Source of the DNA: a virus
Length of the DNA: 23,560 nucleotides
Virus record (IMG/VR): IMGVR_UViG_3300010883_000490
Coordinates: 1-23,560 of that record
Strand: one strand, 5' to 3'
Shown: piece after piece, positions 1 through 5,854 of the stretch
Layout: each line of letters begins with the position of its first letter
Position numbering within the stretch: position 1 is the stretch's first letter
Notes under the pieces: generated by a model
Told to the model about the DNA's origin: nothing
What the model saw: only the letters and a program-made list of their open reading frames with translations
The model's database searches: none
Position numbers and translations under genes: made by a program

Positions 1-166
1 CTTTAAGCTCATCACGCATAGATTTTTTACGAGAATATCTCATATTCTCTAGATTAATCATATGTGCACTATAGCCAGCACCGTTAAATGTAGGAGACTT
101 AAATTTAAATTTAACCTCATCAGCAGCTGCTGAAGTTATAATGAGTGCGATAAGTAATGCCTTCAT
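1..166 (-). CDS. csgF: CsgF-like curli secretion protein, N-terminal part (cut by window edge)
   Basis: Partial gene; 55 codons are visible and the 3' end lies outside the window. The first 15 or so residues (MKALLIALIITSAAA, then DE) form a good Sec signal peptide with an A-x-A type cleavage site, so the product should be exported. The mature start reads VKFKFKSPTFNGAGYSAHM, matching the F-x-F-x-x-P-x-F-x-G pattern at the mature N terminus of CsgF. In bacteria that segment inserts into the CsgG outer-membrane pore. CsgG/CsgF homologues are known in some T4-like marine phages. The neighbour csgG would be expected just beyond the left edge. The gene has its own late-type promoter 5 nt upstream, and its promoter overlaps the stop codon of the upstream holin-like gene. 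The family call rests on a short pattern seen by eye. Confidence 0.6.
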   Translation of the reverse strand, partial: MKALLIALIITSAAADEVKFKFKSPTFNGAGYSAHMINLENMRYSRKKSMRDELK

Positions 167-170
167 ATAG

Positions 171-428
171 TTATTTACTTGTTCTCCGTGTATTATTAGG
201 TGGTTTTTCCTCAGTAATAAGATTTATTTTCATGGTGAGTCTTATCATATCGTTATCTAACATACGAACCTTATCTATTAGACCTATTAACTTACCAGTA
301 GTCTCTTCAATTACAGGTTTTATTTCAGTAGTTACCCATTTCCATATGTAATATACGAAGTACCCTAATCCGCAAGCTGCTATGACTGGAAAGCCATATT
401 TGCTTATCATATCCACTACCGAATCCAT
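171..428 (-). CDS. Small single-span membrane protein, holin-like (second of a tandem pair)
   Basis: 85 residues: one hydrophobic segment at about residues 12-30 (FPVIAACGLGYFVYYIWKWV), then a charged, probably coiled-coil tail with regularly spaced hydrophobics (LIGLIDKVRMLDNDMIRL). This architecture (short N terminus containing YGFP, one membrane span, amphipathic helix) resembles small BhlA/UviB-type holin-like phage proteins. It is paralogous to the gene just upstream, sharing the K-x-GFP motif, the span and the LI-x-LI/V-x-K/R-I/V-x-x-x-x-x-D tail. The ATG overlaps the upstream TGA (TGATG), so translation is probably coupled. A holin role is inference; it could equally be an antiholin or a pore linked to the adjacent CsgF-like protein. 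Confidence 0.6.
   Translation of the reverse strand: MDSVVDMISKYGFPVIAACGLGYFVYYIWKWVTTEIKPVIEETTGKLIGLIDKVRMLDNDMIRLTMKINLITEEKPPNNTRRTSK
172..179 (-). promoter_or_regulatory. T4-type late promoter (AGTAAATA) for csgF-like gene
   Basis: The minus strand reads AGTAAATA, then 5 nt, then the ATG at 166. It shares the TAAATA core of the T4 late promoter and overlaps the upstream gene's stop codon. Confidence 0.6.
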
Positions 429-709
429 CAGTCTTTACGTGAGTCCTCTTTTCCGTCAGCTGCAGCTAACCTTTCTAAATTTGGCTTTTTATTAAATGCT
501 ACTGATATAAGCGTGTCGATTTTAACTATATCATTATTCATAGTATCAATTCTATTTACCAACCCTGTAATAAGATTATTAAGACTTTTAATGGAACCAG
601 TTAGCTCATTTAAAATAAATTTAAGAATAATAAAGATAAAGAATCCTGCGATAAGTGCACCTGCAATAGGAAAGCCTACCTTTTCAGCTACTTGTAAAAA
701 TTCATTCAT
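428..709 (-). CDS. Small single-span membrane protein, holin-like (first of a tandem pair)
   Basis: 93 residues: a hydrophobic segment at about residues 13-33 (FPIAGALIAGFFIFIILKFI), followed by an amphipathic helix (residues about 35-68) and a charged C terminus. It has the same plan as the next gene, so the two are probably a duplication that diverged into partners, as seen in some holin/antiholin pairs. A late-type promoter ACTAAATA lies 6 nt before the ATG, placing it in the late class as expected for lysis. It is divergent from the DUF3307 operon across a 53-nt gap. No lytic enzyme is visible nearby, so the lysis role is inferred from topology alone. Confidence 0.6.
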   Translation of the reverse strand: MNEFLQVAEKVGFPIAGALIAGFFIFIILKFILNELTGSIKSLNNLITGLVNRIDTMNNDIVKIDTLISVAFNKKPNLERLAAADGKEDSRKD

Positions 710-715
710 TTAAAT

Positions 716-723
716 TATTTAGT
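716..723 (-). promoter_or_regulatory. T4-type late promoter (ACTAAATA) for holin-like pair and csgF-like gene
   Basis: The minus strand reads ACTAAATA, then 6 nt, then the ATG at 709. It touches the -35 box of the divergent plus-strand promoter at 723-750. Confidence 0.6.
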
Positions 724-750
724 TGAAAAGTAGATTTTACTCTATATAAT
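723..750 (+). promoter_or_regulatory. Sigma70-like promoter for the QueF operon
   Basis: TTGAAA at 723-728 and TATAAT at 745-750 with a 16-nt spacer, 12 nt before the first ATG of the operon. It is a near-consensus host-type promoter and differs from the TAAATA motif of the structural genes, suggesting early expression of the five-gene operon. Confidence 0.55.
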
Positions 751-762
751 AATAGTAGACGC

Positions 763-1143
763 ATGAGTCAGTTAATACTACATTTGATCGGAGACTATCT
801 TCTTCAGTCAGGTTGGATGGCAGCTAATAAAGCAAGATGCCATTTTGCCGCATTTACACACGCGTTAGTTTACTCTACACCATTCTTATTACTACAACCT
901 TCTCTTAATGCTTGGCTTGTTATATTCAGCACGCATTTAATTATTGATAGGTATAGTTTAGCTAAGCATGTTGCAAAGCTAAAGAACTTTCTTGCACCAA
1001 GAAGTCATTGGCCTCAAAACGGAGACTTATCTCATTTCGGTTATTGTAAGAAGACACCTGAGTTTCTTGCTATGTGGTTGCTTATTATTACTGATAATAC
1101 GTTGCATTTAATGATTAACTTCTTATCATTGAAGTATCTATGA
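763..1143 (+). CDS. DUF3307 family membrane protein
   Basis: 126 residues with several hydrophobic segments (about 30-48, 48-62 and 99-120). The pattern HLIGDYLLQSGWMAANK at residues 7-23, a histidine-containing helix near residue 33 (THALVYSTPF), FSTHLIIDRYSLAKHVAKLKN near 55-75 and IITDNTLHLMINF near the C terminus are the hallmarks of DUF3307, a family of unknown function common in phages and bacteria. The conserved His and Asp residues inside or beside the membrane segments could bind a metal, but no activity is established. First gene of the plus-strand operon; its TGA overlaps the ATG of the formyltransferase (ATGA), implying coupled translation. Confidence 0.75.
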   Translation: MSQLILHLIGDYLLQSGWMAANKARCHFAAFTHALVYSTPFLLLQPSLNAWLVIFSTHLIIDRYSLAKHVAKLKNFLAPRSHWPQNGDLSHFGYCKKTPEFLAMWLLIITDNTLHLMINFLSLKYL

Positions 1144-1718
1144 AGAAATGGATAGTTTTATTCTCACAGACAGGAAGCGAGGTCGTTGATCTCGCTTTAC
1201 ATTTCGATAGGTGGCCGGATATTATAGTTACTAGTAATAGTGATGTGTCGAAGTGGCATCCTCAAATACGTGAACTTCATGAAAGAGGATTATCTAGCTT
1301 CAGTGGTATATCTAGGATCAAAGTGGTTAGTAATATTGAAGCAAAAACTGCTAACTTCTTTCACGGTGTAGCAAATATAGATTCGTTTATTACACTACAT
1401 GGATGGTTACGCATTGTACCGGAAAGTATTTGTAATATGTACACAATTTATAATGGACATCCGGGACTTATTACTGAATACCCCGAGTTAAAAGGTAAGG
1501 ATCCACAAGAGCGTATGTTTAATAACGGTAGCTACACTTACTATGGCAGCGTTGTTCATAAAGTGGTACCTGAGGTTGATAGTGGAGAGATAGTTTATGA
1601 AGTAAAACGATTTAACACCATGAAAACGCTAGATGAAGTATATACAGGGTTAAAAAGTACTTCTTTATCAGCATGGATTGATTTCTTACAAACAACAGAT
1701 ATAATTAAAAGATGCTGA
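1140..1718 (+). CDS. PurN-like formyltransferase, possible preQ1 formyltransferase (DpdN-type)
   Basis: 192 residues of the formyltransferase fold used by PurN. The catalytic triad is recognisable: N105 and H107 in YNGHPGL, and D147 in PEVDSGEIV, at nearly the same positions as N106/H108/D144 of E. coli PurN. LHGWLRIVP (86-94) replaces the PurN AGFMRILSP strand. The N-terminal phosphate-binding GNGSNLQ of PurN is not conserved here (QTGSEVV), which argues against glycinamide ribonucleotide as the acceptor. It lies two genes upstream of queF, whose product preQ1 carries a primary amine. A formyltransferase making 7-(formylamino)methyl-7-deazaguanine in phage DNA (named DpdN) has been proposed in the literature; this gene fits that role by context. 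Formyl transfer from 10-formyl-THF is well supported, the acceptor is inferred. Confidence 0.75.
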   Translation: MKKWIVLFSQTGSEVVDLALHFDRWPDIIVTSNSDVSKWHPQIRELHERGLSSFSGISRIKVVSNIEAKTANFFHGVANIDSFITLHGWLRIVPESICNMYTIYNGHPGLITEYPELKGKDPQERMFNNGSYTYYGSVVHKVVPEVDSGEIVYEVKRFNTMKTLDEVYTGLKSTSLSAWIDFLQTTDIIKRC

Positions 1719-2272
1719 TATCATTCTCCGGAGCTCAAAGTACTGGTAAGTCTACGTTACTTAATATTTTAAAGGATAATAATCCTGATATTTTTATTGT
1801 AGATGAAGTAACTAGAAAGATTAAACGTAAGTTTAATATGCCTATTAATGAGGATGGAGGTGATCTTACGCAATATATGATTATGAATGATCATATAGAA
1901 AACGTATACCGTAAGACGTATGCTGAGCATACTATCTTAGATAGGTGTGCAGTTGATGGTATTGTATATACAGATTGGTTAGGTAGACAGGGTAAAGTAA
2001 GTAAGGTTATATATGATGCTGCATTAAAAGTTTATGATCATTTAGTAAATAAGTATGATGTGGTATTTTATACTAATCCGCATGACGTACCGTTGGTAGA
2101 TGATGGTGAGCGGTCAGCTGATATAAATTTTAGGAATGATATTATTGAGCTGTTTGAAGGTTATTTACCTGATCTTAATAACGTTGTTACATTATCAGGT
2201 ACGGTAGAAGAAAGGTTAAAAACTGTAAAAGAAACTCTTGAAGAAAGAGGGTTAGATATTAAAATTAAATAA
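1712..2272 (+). CDS. P-loop nucleoside/nucleotide kinase-like ATPase (NadR/AAA_28 type)
   Basis: 186 residues. A Walker A motif lies at the very N terminus (GAQSTGKST, residues 7-15), followed by VDEVTRK (about 30-36), an ILDRCAVDGIVYTDWL segment (about 75-90) typical of the NadR kinase/Ttd14-like group, and a late VVFYTNP strand. These are compact P-loop kinases acting on nucleosides, nicotinamide riboside or similar small substrates. The start overlaps the end of the formyltransferase by 7 nt, so it belongs to the same operon. In this context it might phosphorylate a modified base precursor or take part in NAD metabolism (QueF uses NADPH), but neither can be read from sequence. Confidence 0.7.
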   Translation: MLISFSGAQSTGKSTLLNILKDNNPDIFIVDEVTRKIKRKFNMPINEDGGDLTQYMIMNDHIENVYRKTYAEHTILDRCAVDGIVYTDWLGRQGKVSKVIYDAALKVYDHLVNKYDVVFYTNPHDVPLVDDGERSADINFRNDIIELFEGYLPDLNNVVTLSGTVEERLKTVKETLEERGLDIKIK

Positions 2273-2275
2273 GTT

Positions 2276-3205
2276 ATGGCATTAAAAGAATTAGATAATA
2301 GTAATATTAGCAAGCATTTGGGGCAATCGTCTCAATATAAGGATACGTACGATTCAGAGCTTCTAGTAAGAGAGCCTAGAGCGTCTAATAGAACGCATCT
2401 AGACATAGACGATGATAATCTACCTTTCGATGGAGGTGATACTTGGAACGCATATGAAGTATCTGGACTTACAGATCACGGATTACCTGTAGTAGGTATT
2501 GCAAAGGTTTTTATTCCTTGTAATAGTGAGTTTATCGTTGAGTCTAAATCCTTTAAGCTATACTTTAACTCCTTTAATATGACTAAGCTCGGCGCAACCC
2601 AAGCGGAGGTATTAAAGACTATTGAACTAAATGCGCAATCAGATCTTACAGAGTTACTTGAACGTAATGTTGAAGTAAGAGTTGATACTAACGAGCATGT
2701 ACTTAGCGAAGTTACATCTGCAAACGATGAATGGGGTCATAACTACCGTGAGTTTAGTCATATTACTCTTGAAGAAGAGTATCCTATTGACGATTTGGAG
2801 TTTACTGTCTATCAAGAGACTCCAGAATTACTCGTAACTGTTCAGAATGATGTAGATGTAGTACGTTATCATAGTGCACTGCTTAAGTCTAACTGTCGTG
2901 TAACTTCACAACCTGATTGGGGTGATGTGTATATTGAGATTGAAGGAGATAAGGCTGTAGATCCTATCTCACTACTTAAATATATTGTCTCTTTTAGAGA
3001 TGAATGTCACTTTCATGAAGAGATTTGTGAGACTATTTACAAACGTTTATATGATATCCTTAAACCAGATAAGCTGGCTGTAAGATGTTTATATGCTCGT
3101 AGAGGTGGTATTGATATTAACCCTGAACGATATTCAGATGTTAGTATGCGACATTTTACCTTACATGATGTTACAGTGCCTCATGTAAAGACACCTAAGC
3201 AATAA
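2276..3205 (+). CDS. queF: NADPH-dependent 7-cyano-7-deazaguanine (preQ0) reductase, long form
   Basis: 309 residues, matching the long, two-module (E. coli YqcD-type) QueF. The QueF motif ESKSFKLYFNSFN is at residues 89-101 in the first half. The second half carries the catalytic cysteine C207 and D214 in SNCRVTSQPDWGDVYI, F246-H247-E248 (the substrate-binding FHE), and YARRGGIDINP at 273-283. QueF reduces the nitrile of preQ0 to the aminomethyl group of preQ1 in the cytoplasm, using two NADPH. All key residues are intact, so it should be a true reductase rather than an amidino-transfer variant. It follows the kinase by 3 nt. In phages 7-deazaguanines are commonly put into DNA by DpdA transglycosylases for protection from restriction; the alternative is support of host tRNA queuosine. 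Confidence 0.9.
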   Translation: MALKELDNSNISKHLGQSSQYKDTYDSELLVREPRASNRTHLDIDDDNLPFDGGDTWNAYEVSGLTDHGLPVVGIAKVFIPCNSEFIVESKSFKLYFNSFNMTKLGATQAEVLKTIELNAQSDLTELLERNVEVRVDTNEHVLSEVTSANDEWGHNYREFSHITLEEEYPIDDLEFTVYQETPELLVTVQNDVDVVRYHSALLKSNCRVTSQPDWGDVYIEIEGDKAVDPISLLKYIVSFRDECHFHEEICETIYKRLYDILKPDKLAVRCLYARRGGIDINPERYSDVSMRHFTLHDVTVPHVKTPKQ

Positions 3206-3218
3206 CTGGAGTTCAGTA

Positions 3219-3944
3219 ATGGTAATACCACATGATAAAATTCAAGAAATATACGATAAGTATATTAAGATAAATTATACTGAGGAATATAAGAATCGAT
3301 ATGTTCCTCTACCTTTAGAAAAGAACAATAAAAATTGGAAGTGGGAGGATAAGGATCTTCCGCGGATACTATCGTTATTAGAATTTGAACGGTATATTAA
3401 AAAATATGATTTTCAGATAGATAAGTTACTAACGTTCAATGCAGAAGGACCTAATCAACCACAAGATCCGGAGATTGAATATTTGCGGGGGAGACACAAG
3501 CAGAGGTTAAATGTAAACTACGAAGACAATTCCGAAAAATATGATTTGCATAACTTATGCTTATCTAATAATGATTTTGATTTTGTTTGCCTTAGTCAAA
3601 CACTCGAACATGTATATGATCCTTTGTTATGTCTCAAAAATATTAAAAAATACATGTCACCAGGTGGCTATTTATGGATCAATGTACCGGCATGTAATTT
3701 ACCTCATAGTGAACCGTATCATTTTTATACTGGGTTTACGTCTATGGGGCTTGCCGCGATATCATATCAAGCAGGGTATGAAATTATGGAAATAGGGCAA
3801 TGGGGCAATACGGAGTACTTGGGCCGGTTATTTGGTATTACTGGTCCAGAGTGGTGGGCTGATTATAGAATGCTACAAAATCCGGGGTTAAATGAAATTA
3901 GGCGACCTGTTATAACTTGGGCGTTACTAAAAAACAAACAATAA
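3219..3944 (+). CDS. Class I SAM-dependent methyltransferase-like protein with degenerate motif I
   Basis: 241 residues. The C-terminal half of a Rossmann methyltransferase is visible: YDLHNLCLSNNDFDFVCLSQTLEHVYDPLLCLKNI (split here at about residues 108-142) and then KKYMSPGGYLWINVPACN, the usual post-motif IV/V pattern of Methyltransf_11/23-type enzymes. The glycine-rich SAM loop (GxGxG) expected before it is absent; instead there is LLTFNAEGPNQPQDPEIEYL (about 69-88). It closes the operon behind queF and ends 1 nt before the convergent minus-strand gene. By context it could methylate preQ1 or a derived base (a DpdM-like role), but DpdM is described as having an unusual fold, so equivalence is uncertain. 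It could also be a methyltransferase for another small molecule, or an inactive homologue. Confidence 0.6.
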   Translation: MVIPHDKIQEIYDKYIKINYTEEYKNRYVPLPLEKNNKNWKWEDKDLPRILSLLEFERYIKKYDFQIDKLLTFNAEGPNQPQDPEIEYLRGRHKQRLNVNYEDNSEKYDLHNLCLSNNDFDFVCLSQTLEHVYDPLLCLKNIKKYMSPGGYLWINVPACNLPHSEPYHFYTGFTSMGLAAISYQAGYEIMEIGQWGNTEYLGRLFGITGPEWWADYRMLQNPGLNEIRRPVITWALLKNKQ

Positions 3945-4396: not shown

Positions 4397-5854
4397 TTAG
4401 AAGTATACAGACTGAGATGCTGGAGTAAACGCCTCACCAAGTCCATTCACTAGTATAACATGATAGTAGAGATCCGCCCCGAATATATTATCGACGACGC
4501 CATAACGTGTAAGCAAGCCTACACGTGGAGCGAAGTCATTCGGGCCGATTGTTCTCTGTACCATTACAGGAATGTACGGGCAATAAATGATACCAGTATC
4601 GTAGAATTCTGGACCCTTGTAACCAAGGAGTGCATATTCAATGCCAGAAGTACCACCACTATAATAGTTAGGGTTATACTCACTGGTGTTTTGAACTTCA
4701 GTACGGGTATCACGGTAAACGTTAAATCTTCCACCAATTGAACCAACCTTGGCAATACCAACAGGTTGTGTATTCACGTCACCTTGAACAGGTACCCACT
4801 GAAATTCAGGGAGCATTTCAAGAATCGCGCATACACGAGGAGTTCCAACAATAAAGTTGGCAGCTCCTCTTCTGTTACGTACAGCAATACGATTGGCCTC
4901 AATGATTAATCTCTGATAGAAATCACGATTACGCTCTACTAACCAACGACCATCTGCAGAAGCAGGTGACCAGGTAGAGAAACGTTTATGCCCTAGGGCA
5001 GATTGGATCATTCTCATGAGCATTTCACGATCGATCTCAGCTTGGATCTCATACGACATAGCGTTTGTGATCTCAGCGTCAACATCGATTCCGTTCATGT
5101 TCTTGAGGTCTTGCTCGAGTTCAACCGACCAGCGCGCGCCTAAACGACGTGTACCAGCTTCAACGGCTGTTTTCTCGAACTTAACCTCCATTTGAGGAAT
5201 GTTTCCAGTGATTTCGAAAGCAGAAAGTATCTGAGCTACACCTTTGTCCTGATTAGCAAATGCCCATGTTGAGGCATCGCCAGTTTCAGTACCAGATAGT
5301 TCACTAGACGCAGCACCTGTGAAGCGGGTATCAAGTAATTGATAACCTGCTTCAGAACCTGTATCAGCTCCAGCGCCCCCGGTATAACCGAGGCCGTTGC
5401 CGCCTGCTCCTGCTGTTGTTTTACCATCAGTTCCGGTACCGAGATACTCAGACTGATAGGCATAACGAAGTGCAAAAGCAAGTCCGACTGGACCTGACAT
5501 AGGCTGGACACCTACGATCTCATTAGTGATAAGCTCAGGAAACGTACGACGAATCATCGGGATTAAGACTTTTGGTAGACGAGCATCACCTTGTGCATAA
5601 GTATCACCAGAACTAGCCTGGTTAGATGGGTTGTATTGTCCGCCAGCGTTGCCACCAAGGGCTCCGCCACCGTTACTACTACCTTCTTCTATGCACCACT
5701 TTTCCTGGTTCTCTAAGAGAACAGCAGTATTTAAGCGGGTATGGTCATCGTCAATAGCCTTAACGCTATCAGATGTATAATCAAGAACCGGAGCCCACTT
5801 CTCTAGAAGTACGTCCGCTCTATCTCTATCAATAAATGATTGTGGTTTATTCAT
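4397..5854 (-). CDS. 23: Major capsid protein, gp23-like
   Basis: 485 residues (T4 gp23 has 521). Recognisable T4 gp23 blocks: IPMIRRTFPELITNEIVGVQPM with the following SGPVGLAFALR (about 98-130), a GARWSVELEQDLKNMNGIDVDAE segment centred near 245-265 that continues into the DREM helix, and GYKGPEFYDTGIIYCPYIPV followed by GLLTRYGVVDN near the C terminus. It forms the head lattice after maturation. A likely prohead protease site is I55-E56-E57|G58 (the I-x-E rule), which would remove a 57-residue propeptide, comparable to the 65 residues removed in T4. A Gly/Ala-rich segment (about 59-75 and 145-170) is probably surface loop. It lacks a TAAATA promoter of its own and follows the scaffold gene after a 90-nt leader with two hairpins, so it is probably transcribed with gp22. 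Confidence 0.95.
   Translation of the reverse strand: MNKPQSFIDRDRADVLLEKWAPVLDYTSDSVKAIDDDHTRLNTAVLLENQEKWCIEEGSSNGGGALGGNAGGQYNPSNQASSGDTYAQGDARLPKVLIPMIRRTFPELITNEIVGVQPMSGPVGLAFALRYAYQSEYLGTGTDGKTTAGAGGNGLGYTGGAGADTGSEAGYQLLDTRFTGAASSELSGTETGDASTWAFANQDKGVAQILSAFEITGNIPQMEVKFEKTAVEAGTRRLGARWSVELEQDLKNMNGIDVDAEITNAMSYEIQAEIDREMLMRMIQSALGHKRFSTWSPASADGRWLVERNRDFYQRLIIEANRIAVRNRRGAANFIVGTPRVCAILEMLPEFQWVPVQGDVNTQPVGIAKVGSIGGRFNVYRDTRTEVQNTSEYNPNYYSGGTSGIEYALLGYKGPEFYDTGIIYCPYIPVMVQRTIGPNDFAPRVGLLTRYGVVDNIFGADLYYHVILVNGLGEAFTPASQSVYF

What the first reader, a model, noticed from the sequence alone, without database searches (positions are those of the whole stretch)
763..3944. QueF + PurN-like formyltransferase + methyltransferase-like operon: candidate pathway for formylated or methylated preQ1 in phage DNA
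Seen: a tight plus-strand operon with overlapping or nearly abutting genes holds an intact long-form QueF (makes the primary amine preQ1), a formyltransferase with catalytic N/H/D but without the PurN phosphate loop, a small P-loop kinase and a methyltransferase-like protein. Known: phage DNA can carry 7-deazaguanines inserted by DpdA, including formylamino-methyl and methylamino-methyl forms of preQ1, for which a formyltransferase (DpdN) and a methyltransferase (DpdM) have been proposed or shown. Inferred: the acceptor of the formyl group here is preQ1 (free or in DNA). The P-loop kinase and DUF3307 protein are not parts of the known pathway and could be new components. If so, the phage resists host restriction by this modification.
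Basis: partly seen in the sequence, partly recalled or inferred. Interest (0 to 1): 0.85.

Follow-up and report, generated by a model that had tools for sequence, protein, structure and literature searches.

The report
Phage formyl-preQ1 DNA modification cassette
This virus of bacteria carries part of a gene set that most likely swaps guanine in its own DNA for a formyl-tagged guanine look-alike that many DNA-cutting defence enzymes cannot read, and hundreds of related viruses carry the same set with an extra kinase gene that has not, as far as I could find, been linked to this pathway.

Summary
The operon is real: DUF3307 membrane protein, formyltransferase (FT), P-loop kinase, long QueF, then a methyltransferase-like gene. 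A close relative (L002, 90% identical DNA) carries a DpdA 6 kb upstream; its predicted fold best matches tRNA-guanine transglycosylases. A cultured Flavobacterium phage has the order DpdA-FT-kinase-QueF beside FolE, QueD and QueE. In 192 distinct DpdA loci the order DpdA-(FT)-kinase-QueF recurs. FT always had DpdA and QueF where enough flank was available. FT keeps the catalytic N/H/D, replaces PurN's phosphate loop (SGNGSN to SQTGSE), and forms its own clade. So N-formyl-preQ1 in DNA is the best reading; it was not measured.

Two parts change. The methyltransferase is a passenger, inserted over the terminator after QueF; its one relative lies in a sugar cluster. The kinase is a core DpdA partner (181/192 loci); in four kinase-less loci a DUF3310 protein (T7 gp1.7 dGMP/dTMP-kinase family) fills the slot. 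With Gpt/Hpt-type phosphoribosyltransferases in 15 of 17 such records (0 of 8 controls), this suggests a guanine-recycling loop. The DpdA/formyl chemistry is of a known kind; the kinase and recycling link appear new.

The parts
763..1143 (+). Small membrane protein, DUF3307 (phrog_6676); lineage-specific companion, role unknown
   Evidence: Pfam PF11750 29.7 bits over cut-off 23; phrog_6676 6e-38; found only beside FT in the window's syntenic group
1140..1718 (+). Formyltransferase (DpdN-like candidate), 192 aa, proposed preQ1 N-formyltransferase
   Evidence: Formyl_trans_N; catalytic N105/H107/D147 invariant, SQTGSE in place of PurN SGNGSN; AF2 pLDDT 93, Foldseek PurN TM about 0.7 at 18-20% id; separate clade from PurN/PurU/Fmt/ArnA; always with DpdA and QueF where room allows
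1712..2272 (+). P-loop kinase, AAA_28/NadR-ribosylnicotinamide-kinase-like, 186 aa; core DpdA partner, proposed (d)GMP-type nucleotide kinase
   Evidence: AAA_28 1.5e-16; profile hits NadR 1e-5 and thymidylate kinase 3.5e-5; 181 of 192 distinct DpdA loci; DUF3310 replaces it in four loci
2276..3205 (+). QueF, long form, 309 aa: NADPH-dependent preQ0 to preQ1 nitrile reductase
   Evidence: QueF_N and QueF domains; TIGR03138 252 bits, 6e-75, below equivalog cut-off 293; Cys207, Asp214, ESKS motif invariant
3219..3944 (+). Class I methyltransferase-like gene: inserted in this phage, NOT part of the cassette
   Evidence: window matches L002 at 42-3204 and again from 3945; the 740 bp between replace 47 bp holding a terminator-like hairpin in L002; absent from the other loci searched; only relative L348 in a nucleotide-sugar cluster
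2..166 (-). Start of a CsgF-like curli gene, cut by the contig end; marks where the window stops short of the DpdA gene seen in L002
   Evidence: translation matches CsgF of L002:8563-9030
4397..5854 (-). Major head protein: context gene showing the cassette sits beside the T4-like capsid genes
   Evidence: phrog_138 1e-85

Best explanation
The window holds the downstream part of a phage DNA-guanine replacement cassette of the DpdA3 type. Steps: (1) GTP is turned into preQ0 by FolE, QueD, QueE and QueC (phage-encoded in larger relatives; not seen in this fragment). (2) QueF (2276-3205) reduces preQ0 to the amine preQ1. (3) A short TGT-fold transglycosylase (DpdA3; seen in a close relative, beyond the window's left end) exchanges guanine in DNA for the 7-deazaguanine base. 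(4) The formyltransferase (1140-1718) uses 10-formyl-tetrahydrofolate to put a formyl group on the aminomethyl nitrogen of preQ1, before or after insertion. (5) The kinase (1712-2272) is a core partner of DpdA, most likely a guanine-nucleotide (dGMP or GMP) kinase that helps recycle or supply guanine nucleotides. Shown: the genes, their order, their families, the DpdA fold and the co-occurrence. Inferred: the product (N-formyl-preQ1 in DNA), the order of steps 3 and 4, and the kinase substrate. The methyltransferase is not part of it.
For: L002, 90% identical over the operon, has a DpdA 6 kb upstream, 46% identical to the annotated DpdA of Flavobacterium phage immuto. Its model (pLDDT 95) gives TGT as the top 50 PDB matches. 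Immuto has QueD, QueE, FolE, MazG, DpdA, FT, kinase, QueF in one run. Where room allows, FT has DpdA in 45/45, QueF in 48/48 and kinase in 45/48 distinct loci. Large relatives: QueD 13/15, FolE 10/15, QueC 13/15. FT catalytic triad invariant, PurN phosphate loop replaced, separate clade. FT subfamily nearly absent from 84,980 prokaryote genomes: one hit, itself a DpdA-FT pair in a phage-like contig. Kinase in 181/192 DpdA loci, present with DpdA but without QueF or FT nearby in Campylobacter firehammerviruses, whose DNA is reported to have complete dG replacement by 7-deazaguanines (PMC10273834).
Against: No DpdA in the window itself (it is a fragment). No base was measured. The paper naming DpdN/DpdM (Cui 2023) was not held, so FT was not compared with published DpdN. 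A third of DpdA-kinase-QueF cassettes lack FT, so formylation is not obligatory. The kinase substrate rests on analogy. Loci were the best 80 per scan and are not phylogenetically independent.
Confidence: 0.72

Rival explanations
1. The formyltransferase is a divergent PurN that boosts purine synthesis, as in cyanophages; its closeness to QueF is incidental.
For: Best structural and sequence matches are PurN; cyanophages do carry PurN.
Against: TIGR00639 score 30.5 against cut-off 150.1; phosphate loop replaced with an invariant Glu; separate clade, branch 2.9; always with DpdA and QueF where room allows; a DpdA-FT pair in an unrelated phage contig.
Confidence: 0.06
2. The cassette makes queuosine or preQ1 for tRNA rather than for DNA, as suggested for phages with Que genes but no DpdA.
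For: QueF and the preQ0 genes also serve tRNA queuosine; KVP40 and pf16 carry such clusters without an annotated DpdA nearby.
Against: A short TGT-fold DpdA adjoins or accompanies the cassette; a formylated preQ1 is not a known tRNA precursor; kinase and FT are absent from the pf16 and KVP40 clusters.
Confidence: 0.08
3. FT formylates another amine (for example a nucleotide sugar or a protein) and shares the operon only for regulation.
For: Sugar N-formyltransferases share the fold; phages of this group carry sugar genes.
Against: FT tracks DpdA and QueF across distant phages; sugar enzymes match worse than PurN and have extra domains.
Confidence: 0.1
4. The kinase is an ATP-dependent helper of DpdA (DNA opening or processivity) rather than a nucleotide kinase.
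For: It adjoins DpdA even without QueF or FT; bacterial Dpd islands need other proteins beside DpdA (own knowledge).
Against: Conserved NadR-type DDGxRS motif and DRC/DRT motif; nucleotide-kinase matches; replacement by DUF3310 at the same place.
Confidence: 0.25

Closest known systems
Flavobacterium phage vB_FspM_immuto_2-6A DpdA/Que cluster (NC_055915)
   Same: DpdA, FT, kinase, QueF in the same order, with FolE, QueD, QueE, MazG and a Gpt-like PRTase
   Different: DpdA lies directly upstream of FT; in the window's lineage DpdA lies 6 kb away behind curli genes, and DUF3307 precedes FT; FT 42-47% and QueF 46% identical
DpdN, proposed dPreQ1 formyltransferase (Cui et al. 2023 NAR 51:9214, known from memory; paper not held)
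   Same: predicted to formylate preQ1 in phages that carry DpdA
   Different: could not be compared by sequence; the kinase link is not something I know to be described there
Campylobacter firehammerviruses (CP220)
   Same: DpdA 43-44% identical, directly followed by the same kinase; complete dG replacement by 7-deazaguanine derivatives reported (PMC10273834)
   Different: no FT or QueF nearby, no Gpt-like gene
PurN, GAR formyltransferase
   Same: fold and catalytic N/H/D
   Different: phosphate loop, insertion after HPGL, separate clade, scores far below the PurN cut-off
T7 gp1.7 nucleotide kinase (DUF3310)
   Same: a DUF3310 gene takes the kinase's exact place in four cassettes; T7 gp1.7 phosphorylates dGMP and dTMP (PMC12846349, PMC7693777)
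   Different: no sequence relation to the AAA_28 kinase was seen

Membership tests
DpdN (dPreQ1 formyltransferase) | formyltransferase fold with catalytic N/H/D | tested here: met
   N105/H107/D147 invariant; Foldseek PurN-type fold
DpdN (dPreQ1 formyltransferase) | encoded with DpdA and a preQ1 source (QueF) | tested here: met
   DpdA 45/45, QueF 48/48 loci with room; for the window itself DpdA shown only in relative L002
DpdN (dPreQ1 formyltransferase) | sequence match to published DpdN | not tested
   paper not held
DpdN (dPreQ1 formyltransferase) | formylated dPreQ1 in virion DNA | not testable with these tools
   needs mass spectrometry
PurN (GAR formyltransferase) | TIGR00639 equivalog score of at least 150.1 | tested here: not met
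   30.5 bits
PurN (GAR formyltransferase) | GAR phosphate loop SGNGSN/T | tested here: not met
   SQTGSE, Glu14 invariant
PurN (GAR formyltransferase) | clusters with PurN in a tree | tested here: not met
   split from all PurN with bootstrap 100, branch 2.89
QueF long form (preQ0 reductase) | QueF_N plus QueF domains, catalytic Cys and Asp, ESKS motif | tested here: met
QueF long form (preQ0 reductase) | TIGR03138 equivalog cut-off 293 | tested here: not met
   252 bits, E 6e-75; a divergent phage branch that keeps the domains and catalytic residues
DpdA (TGT superfamily), gene in relative L002 | TGT fold with two catalytic Asp motifs | tested here: met
   top 50 PDB hits TGT, E about 1e-7; LDNSIFE and DTSNP motifs conserved; the Pfam TGT profile does not reach it
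DpdA3 subfamily | complete guanine replacement | not testable with these tools
   inferred from kinship to the firehammervirus DpdA; subfamily name from memory
DpdM (dPreQ1 methyltransferase), for 3219-3944 | linked to DpdA/QueF across phages | tested here: not met
   absent from L002, L003 and the other loci searched; relative in a sugar cluster
NadR ribosylnicotinamide kinase, for 1712-2272 | TIGR01526 equivalog-domain cut-off 341 | tested here: not met
   15.2 bits; related only at AAA_28 level
(d)GMP-type nucleotide kinase, for 1712-2272 | phosphorylation of GMP or dGMP | not testable with these tools
   inferred from DUF3310 replacement

The most novel reading that the evidence does not exclude
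Phages that replace all of their guanine run a guanine-recycling loop: DpdA3 releases one guanine per base exchanged, a phage Gpt/Hpt phosphoribosyltransferase returns it to GMP, a dedicated kinase beside DpdA (AAA_28 type, or DUF3310 in its place) lifts the nucleotide toward GTP/dGTP, and FolE-QueD-QueE-QueC-QueF turn GTP into the next 7-deazaguanine. Pulling guanine away would also push the reversible exchange to completion.
Probability: 0.35. Interest if true: 0.75.

Novelty: new variant of a known kind. Interest (0 to 1): 0.56.

Why it matters
It extends formyl-preQ1 type DNA modification from a cultured Flavobacterium phage to hundreds of uncultured, largely T4-like phages, and separates core parts (DpdA, kinase, QueF) from optional ones (FT) and from passengers (methyltransferase). 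It names a specific, testable missing component, the kinase, and offers an explanation of how a phage could replace every guanine without flooding the cell with free guanine. The FT family is also a candidate enzyme for formylating an aminomethyl base.

Tried and rejected
Pfam TGT model against the window and relatives: no hit even in immuto, whose DpdA is annotated; resolved by structure. A profile of DpdA against PDB sequences: nothing. preQ1 riboswitch or other Rfam family near the operon: none in window or L002, only tRNAs in L001. Methyltransferase as DpdM: rejected. Kinase as a general QueF partner: rejected, since QueF clusters of KVP40 and pf16 lack it; KVP40 has only a remote match to the kinase profile elsewhere. 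Second kinase paralogues near QueD/FolE in large relatives are more divergent and not equally tied to DpdA. PRTase association is weak at short range: only 14 of 44 DpdA loci with 9 kb upstream show it nearby, so the claim rests on whole records. Cui 2023 could not be read.
Full report
WHAT THE WINDOW IS. The 23,560-base window is a whole IMG/VR record, a fragment of a T4-like myovirus: T4-like terminase and major head protein are identified, and the neighbouring large ORFs are in keeping with portal, sheath and tube genes (my reading). Its left end cuts into a CsgF-like curli gene, so anything further left is unknown for this record.

Five + strand ORFs run head to tail: DUF3307 763-1143, formyltransferase (FT) 1140-1718, P-loop kinase 1712-2272, long QueF 2276-3205, methyltransferase-like (MT) 3219-3944. 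FT has the catalytic N105, H107 and D147, invariant in 45 diverse relatives. It has SQTGSE where PurN has SGNGSN, with the Glu invariant. QueF keeps the catalytic Cys and Asp and the ESKS motif in all 24 sequences aligned.

THE MISSING DpdA. The window has none, but it is a fragment. A relative, L002 (40 kb contig, 90% identical DNA across 42-3204), carries a 273-aa protein 6 kb upstream of the operon, 46% identical to the annotated DNA-guanine transglycosylase of Flavobacterium phage immuto. Pfam's TGT model does not see either. An AlphaFold2 model with 37 relatives has pLDDT 95 and pTM 0.91, and its 50 best PDB matches are all tRNA-guanine transglycosylases, E about 1e-7. The motifs LDNSIFE and SxDTSNP are conserved; that they correspond to the two catalytic aspartates of TGT is my reading. 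Campylobacter firehammerviruses carry the same protein at 43-44% identity, and their DNA is reported to have complete replacement of dG by 7-deazaguanine derivatives (PMC10273834).

THE CASSETTE ACROSS VIRUSES. Immuto has QueD, QueE, a phosphoribosyltransferase, FolE, MazG, DpdA, FT, kinase and QueF in one + strand run. Scans of IMG/VR gave 314 FT, more than 540 DpdA and more than 540 kinase relatives; the best 80 of each scan were kept. Counting distinct loci with at least 3.5 kb of room, FT has DpdA in 45 of 45, QueF in 48 of 48 and kinase in 45 of 48; DpdA has kinase in 73 of 75, QueF in 71 of 75 and FT in 29 of 75; kinase has QueF in 58 of 58. Of 192 distinct DpdA loci, 109 read DpdA-FT-KIN-QueF and 63 DpdA-KIN-QueF; no locus departs from the order. 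On DpdA and kinase trees the presence of FT changes only about three times, against about 50 for shuffled labels: FT is an optional, clade-wise trait, so DpdA proteins of this family work with and without it. Among 15 large records, QueD is found in 13, FolE in 10 and QueC in 13; in one syntenic relative FolE, QueD and a QueE-like ORF lie together. FT is almost confined to viruses: in 84,980 prokaryote genomes only one match appeared, and it sits in a phage-like contig directly after a DpdA-like ORF.

FT IS NOT PurN. It scores 30.5 bits against the PurN equivalog cut-off of 150.1. Its model (pLDDT 93) superposes on PurN with TM about 0.7 at 18-20% identity. In a tree with PurN from E. coli, Acinetobacter, Listeria, cyanophages and a fecal phage-collection contig, and with PurU, Fmt and ArnA, the FT family is split off with bootstrap 100 and a branch of 2.9 substitutions per site. 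An invariant Glu where PurN binds the phosphate of GAR fits a substrate without phosphate, such as preQ1 (inference). The enzyme is a single domain, with none of the extra C-terminal domain of Fmt; whether it acts on the free base or on DNA cannot be told.

THE METHYLTRANSFERASE IS A PASSENGER. The window and L002 align at 42-3204 and again from 3945. The 740 bases between, which hold the MT, replace 47 bases in L002 containing an intrinsic-terminator-like hairpin (AAAAAAGCCGGCATTAATGCCGGCTTTTTT). The MT has no relative in the other cassette loci searched, none in annotated phages and only one in IMG/VR, inside what reads as a nucleotide-sugar and glycan gene cluster. It shows ordinary class I methyltransferase matches. 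DpdM, as I recall it, has an unusual fold.

THE KINASE IS CORE. In 50,697 annotated phage records its relatives at E below 1e-5 occur only in immuto and Campylobacter phages; in CP220 one copy directly follows DpdA with no QueF or FT near, and a second, more divergent copy lies beside a dUTPase. KVP40 and pf16, which have Que clusters without an annotated DpdA nearby, lack it there. Of the 192 DpdA loci 181 have it. The 11 without are informative. In four (L009, L024, L030, L065) a DUF3310 protein stands in exactly that slot; DUF3310 is the family of T7 gp1.7, a dGMP and dTMP kinase (PMC12846349, PMC7693777). L212 has a divergent AAA_28 kinase there. In L215 an ORF that I read as IMP dehydrogenase/GMP reductase-like lies nearby. 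L232 has FolE, an Hpt-like phosphoribosyltransferase, MazG, DpdA and a QueC-like ORF in one run. L062, L088 and L120 end shortly after DpdA or FT, and L317 has no kinase next to DpdA-FT. The kinase's best profile matches are NadR ribosylnicotinamide kinase and thymidylate kinase. A nucleotide kinase for dGMP or GMP is therefore my best guess, with an ATP-dependent DpdA helper as the main rival.

A RECYCLING LOOP? Exchange of all guanines releases one free guanine per base, and each 7-deazaguanine costs one GTP (established chemistry of TGT and the Que pathway). Whole-record searches find a Gpt- or Hpt-like phosphoribosyltransferase in 15 of 17 DpdA records (14 of 15 IMG/VR records and immuto; not G006, not CP220), including L002's contig, and a Gpt/Hpt-like one in none of 8 T4-like controls (Fisher one-sided 4e-5; the records are related, so this overstates the case). 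This supports, but does not prove, a phage-run guanine salvage loop that the kinase would serve.

WHAT IS KNOWN AND WHAT IS NEW. DpdA-based 7-deazaguanine in phage DNA is known (PMC6884629). Formylated and methylated dPreQ1 with DpdN and DpdM were reported in Cui et al. 2023, which I know only from memory and could not read here. The FT of the window is best filed as a DpdN-like candidate, not a proven member. The kinase as a core partner, its replacement by DUF3310, and the Gpt/Hpt link are not described in the papers I could read; I cannot exclude that Cui 2023 mentions the kinase.

LIMITS. No base was measured. The window's own DpdA is inferred from a relative. Scans kept only the best 80 loci. 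Kinase and recycling roles are inference.

Noticed in passing
L002:4051-9030 (minus strand); window 2-166: Curli-type cluster in a phage: CsgF, CsgG, a repeat protein that may be a curlin, an ORF that may be FecR-like, and a CHASE2-adenylate cyclase, lying between DpdA and the operon; the window's left end holds the start of the CsgF gene.
   Followed up: partly
L162:6691-9664: A pair of ORFs that look like the Planctomycetes-type DUF1549/DUF1501 proteins at the far end of the close relative's contig; unusual cargo for a T4-like phage and a possible host clue.
   Followed up: no
G003:145210, G004:96401, G007:18480, G014:43734; CP220:5407-5940: A second, more divergent kinase paralogue in the large relatives, near QueD/FolE, and in CP220 beside a dUTPase.
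   Followed up: partly
window:171-709 (minus strand): Two tandem, related small membrane-type ORFs, both phrog_18771, one with a weak holin match.
   Followed up: no
L215:7522-8589: ORF that reads as IMP dehydrogenase/GMP reductase-like close to DpdA in a locus without the kinase.
   Followed up: partly
L166:6917-7546: Vibrio phage 2.275.O has a COG1738 (YhhQ-type) transporter next to QueF; DUF3307 in the window could be compared with it as a possible transport protein.
   Followed up: no
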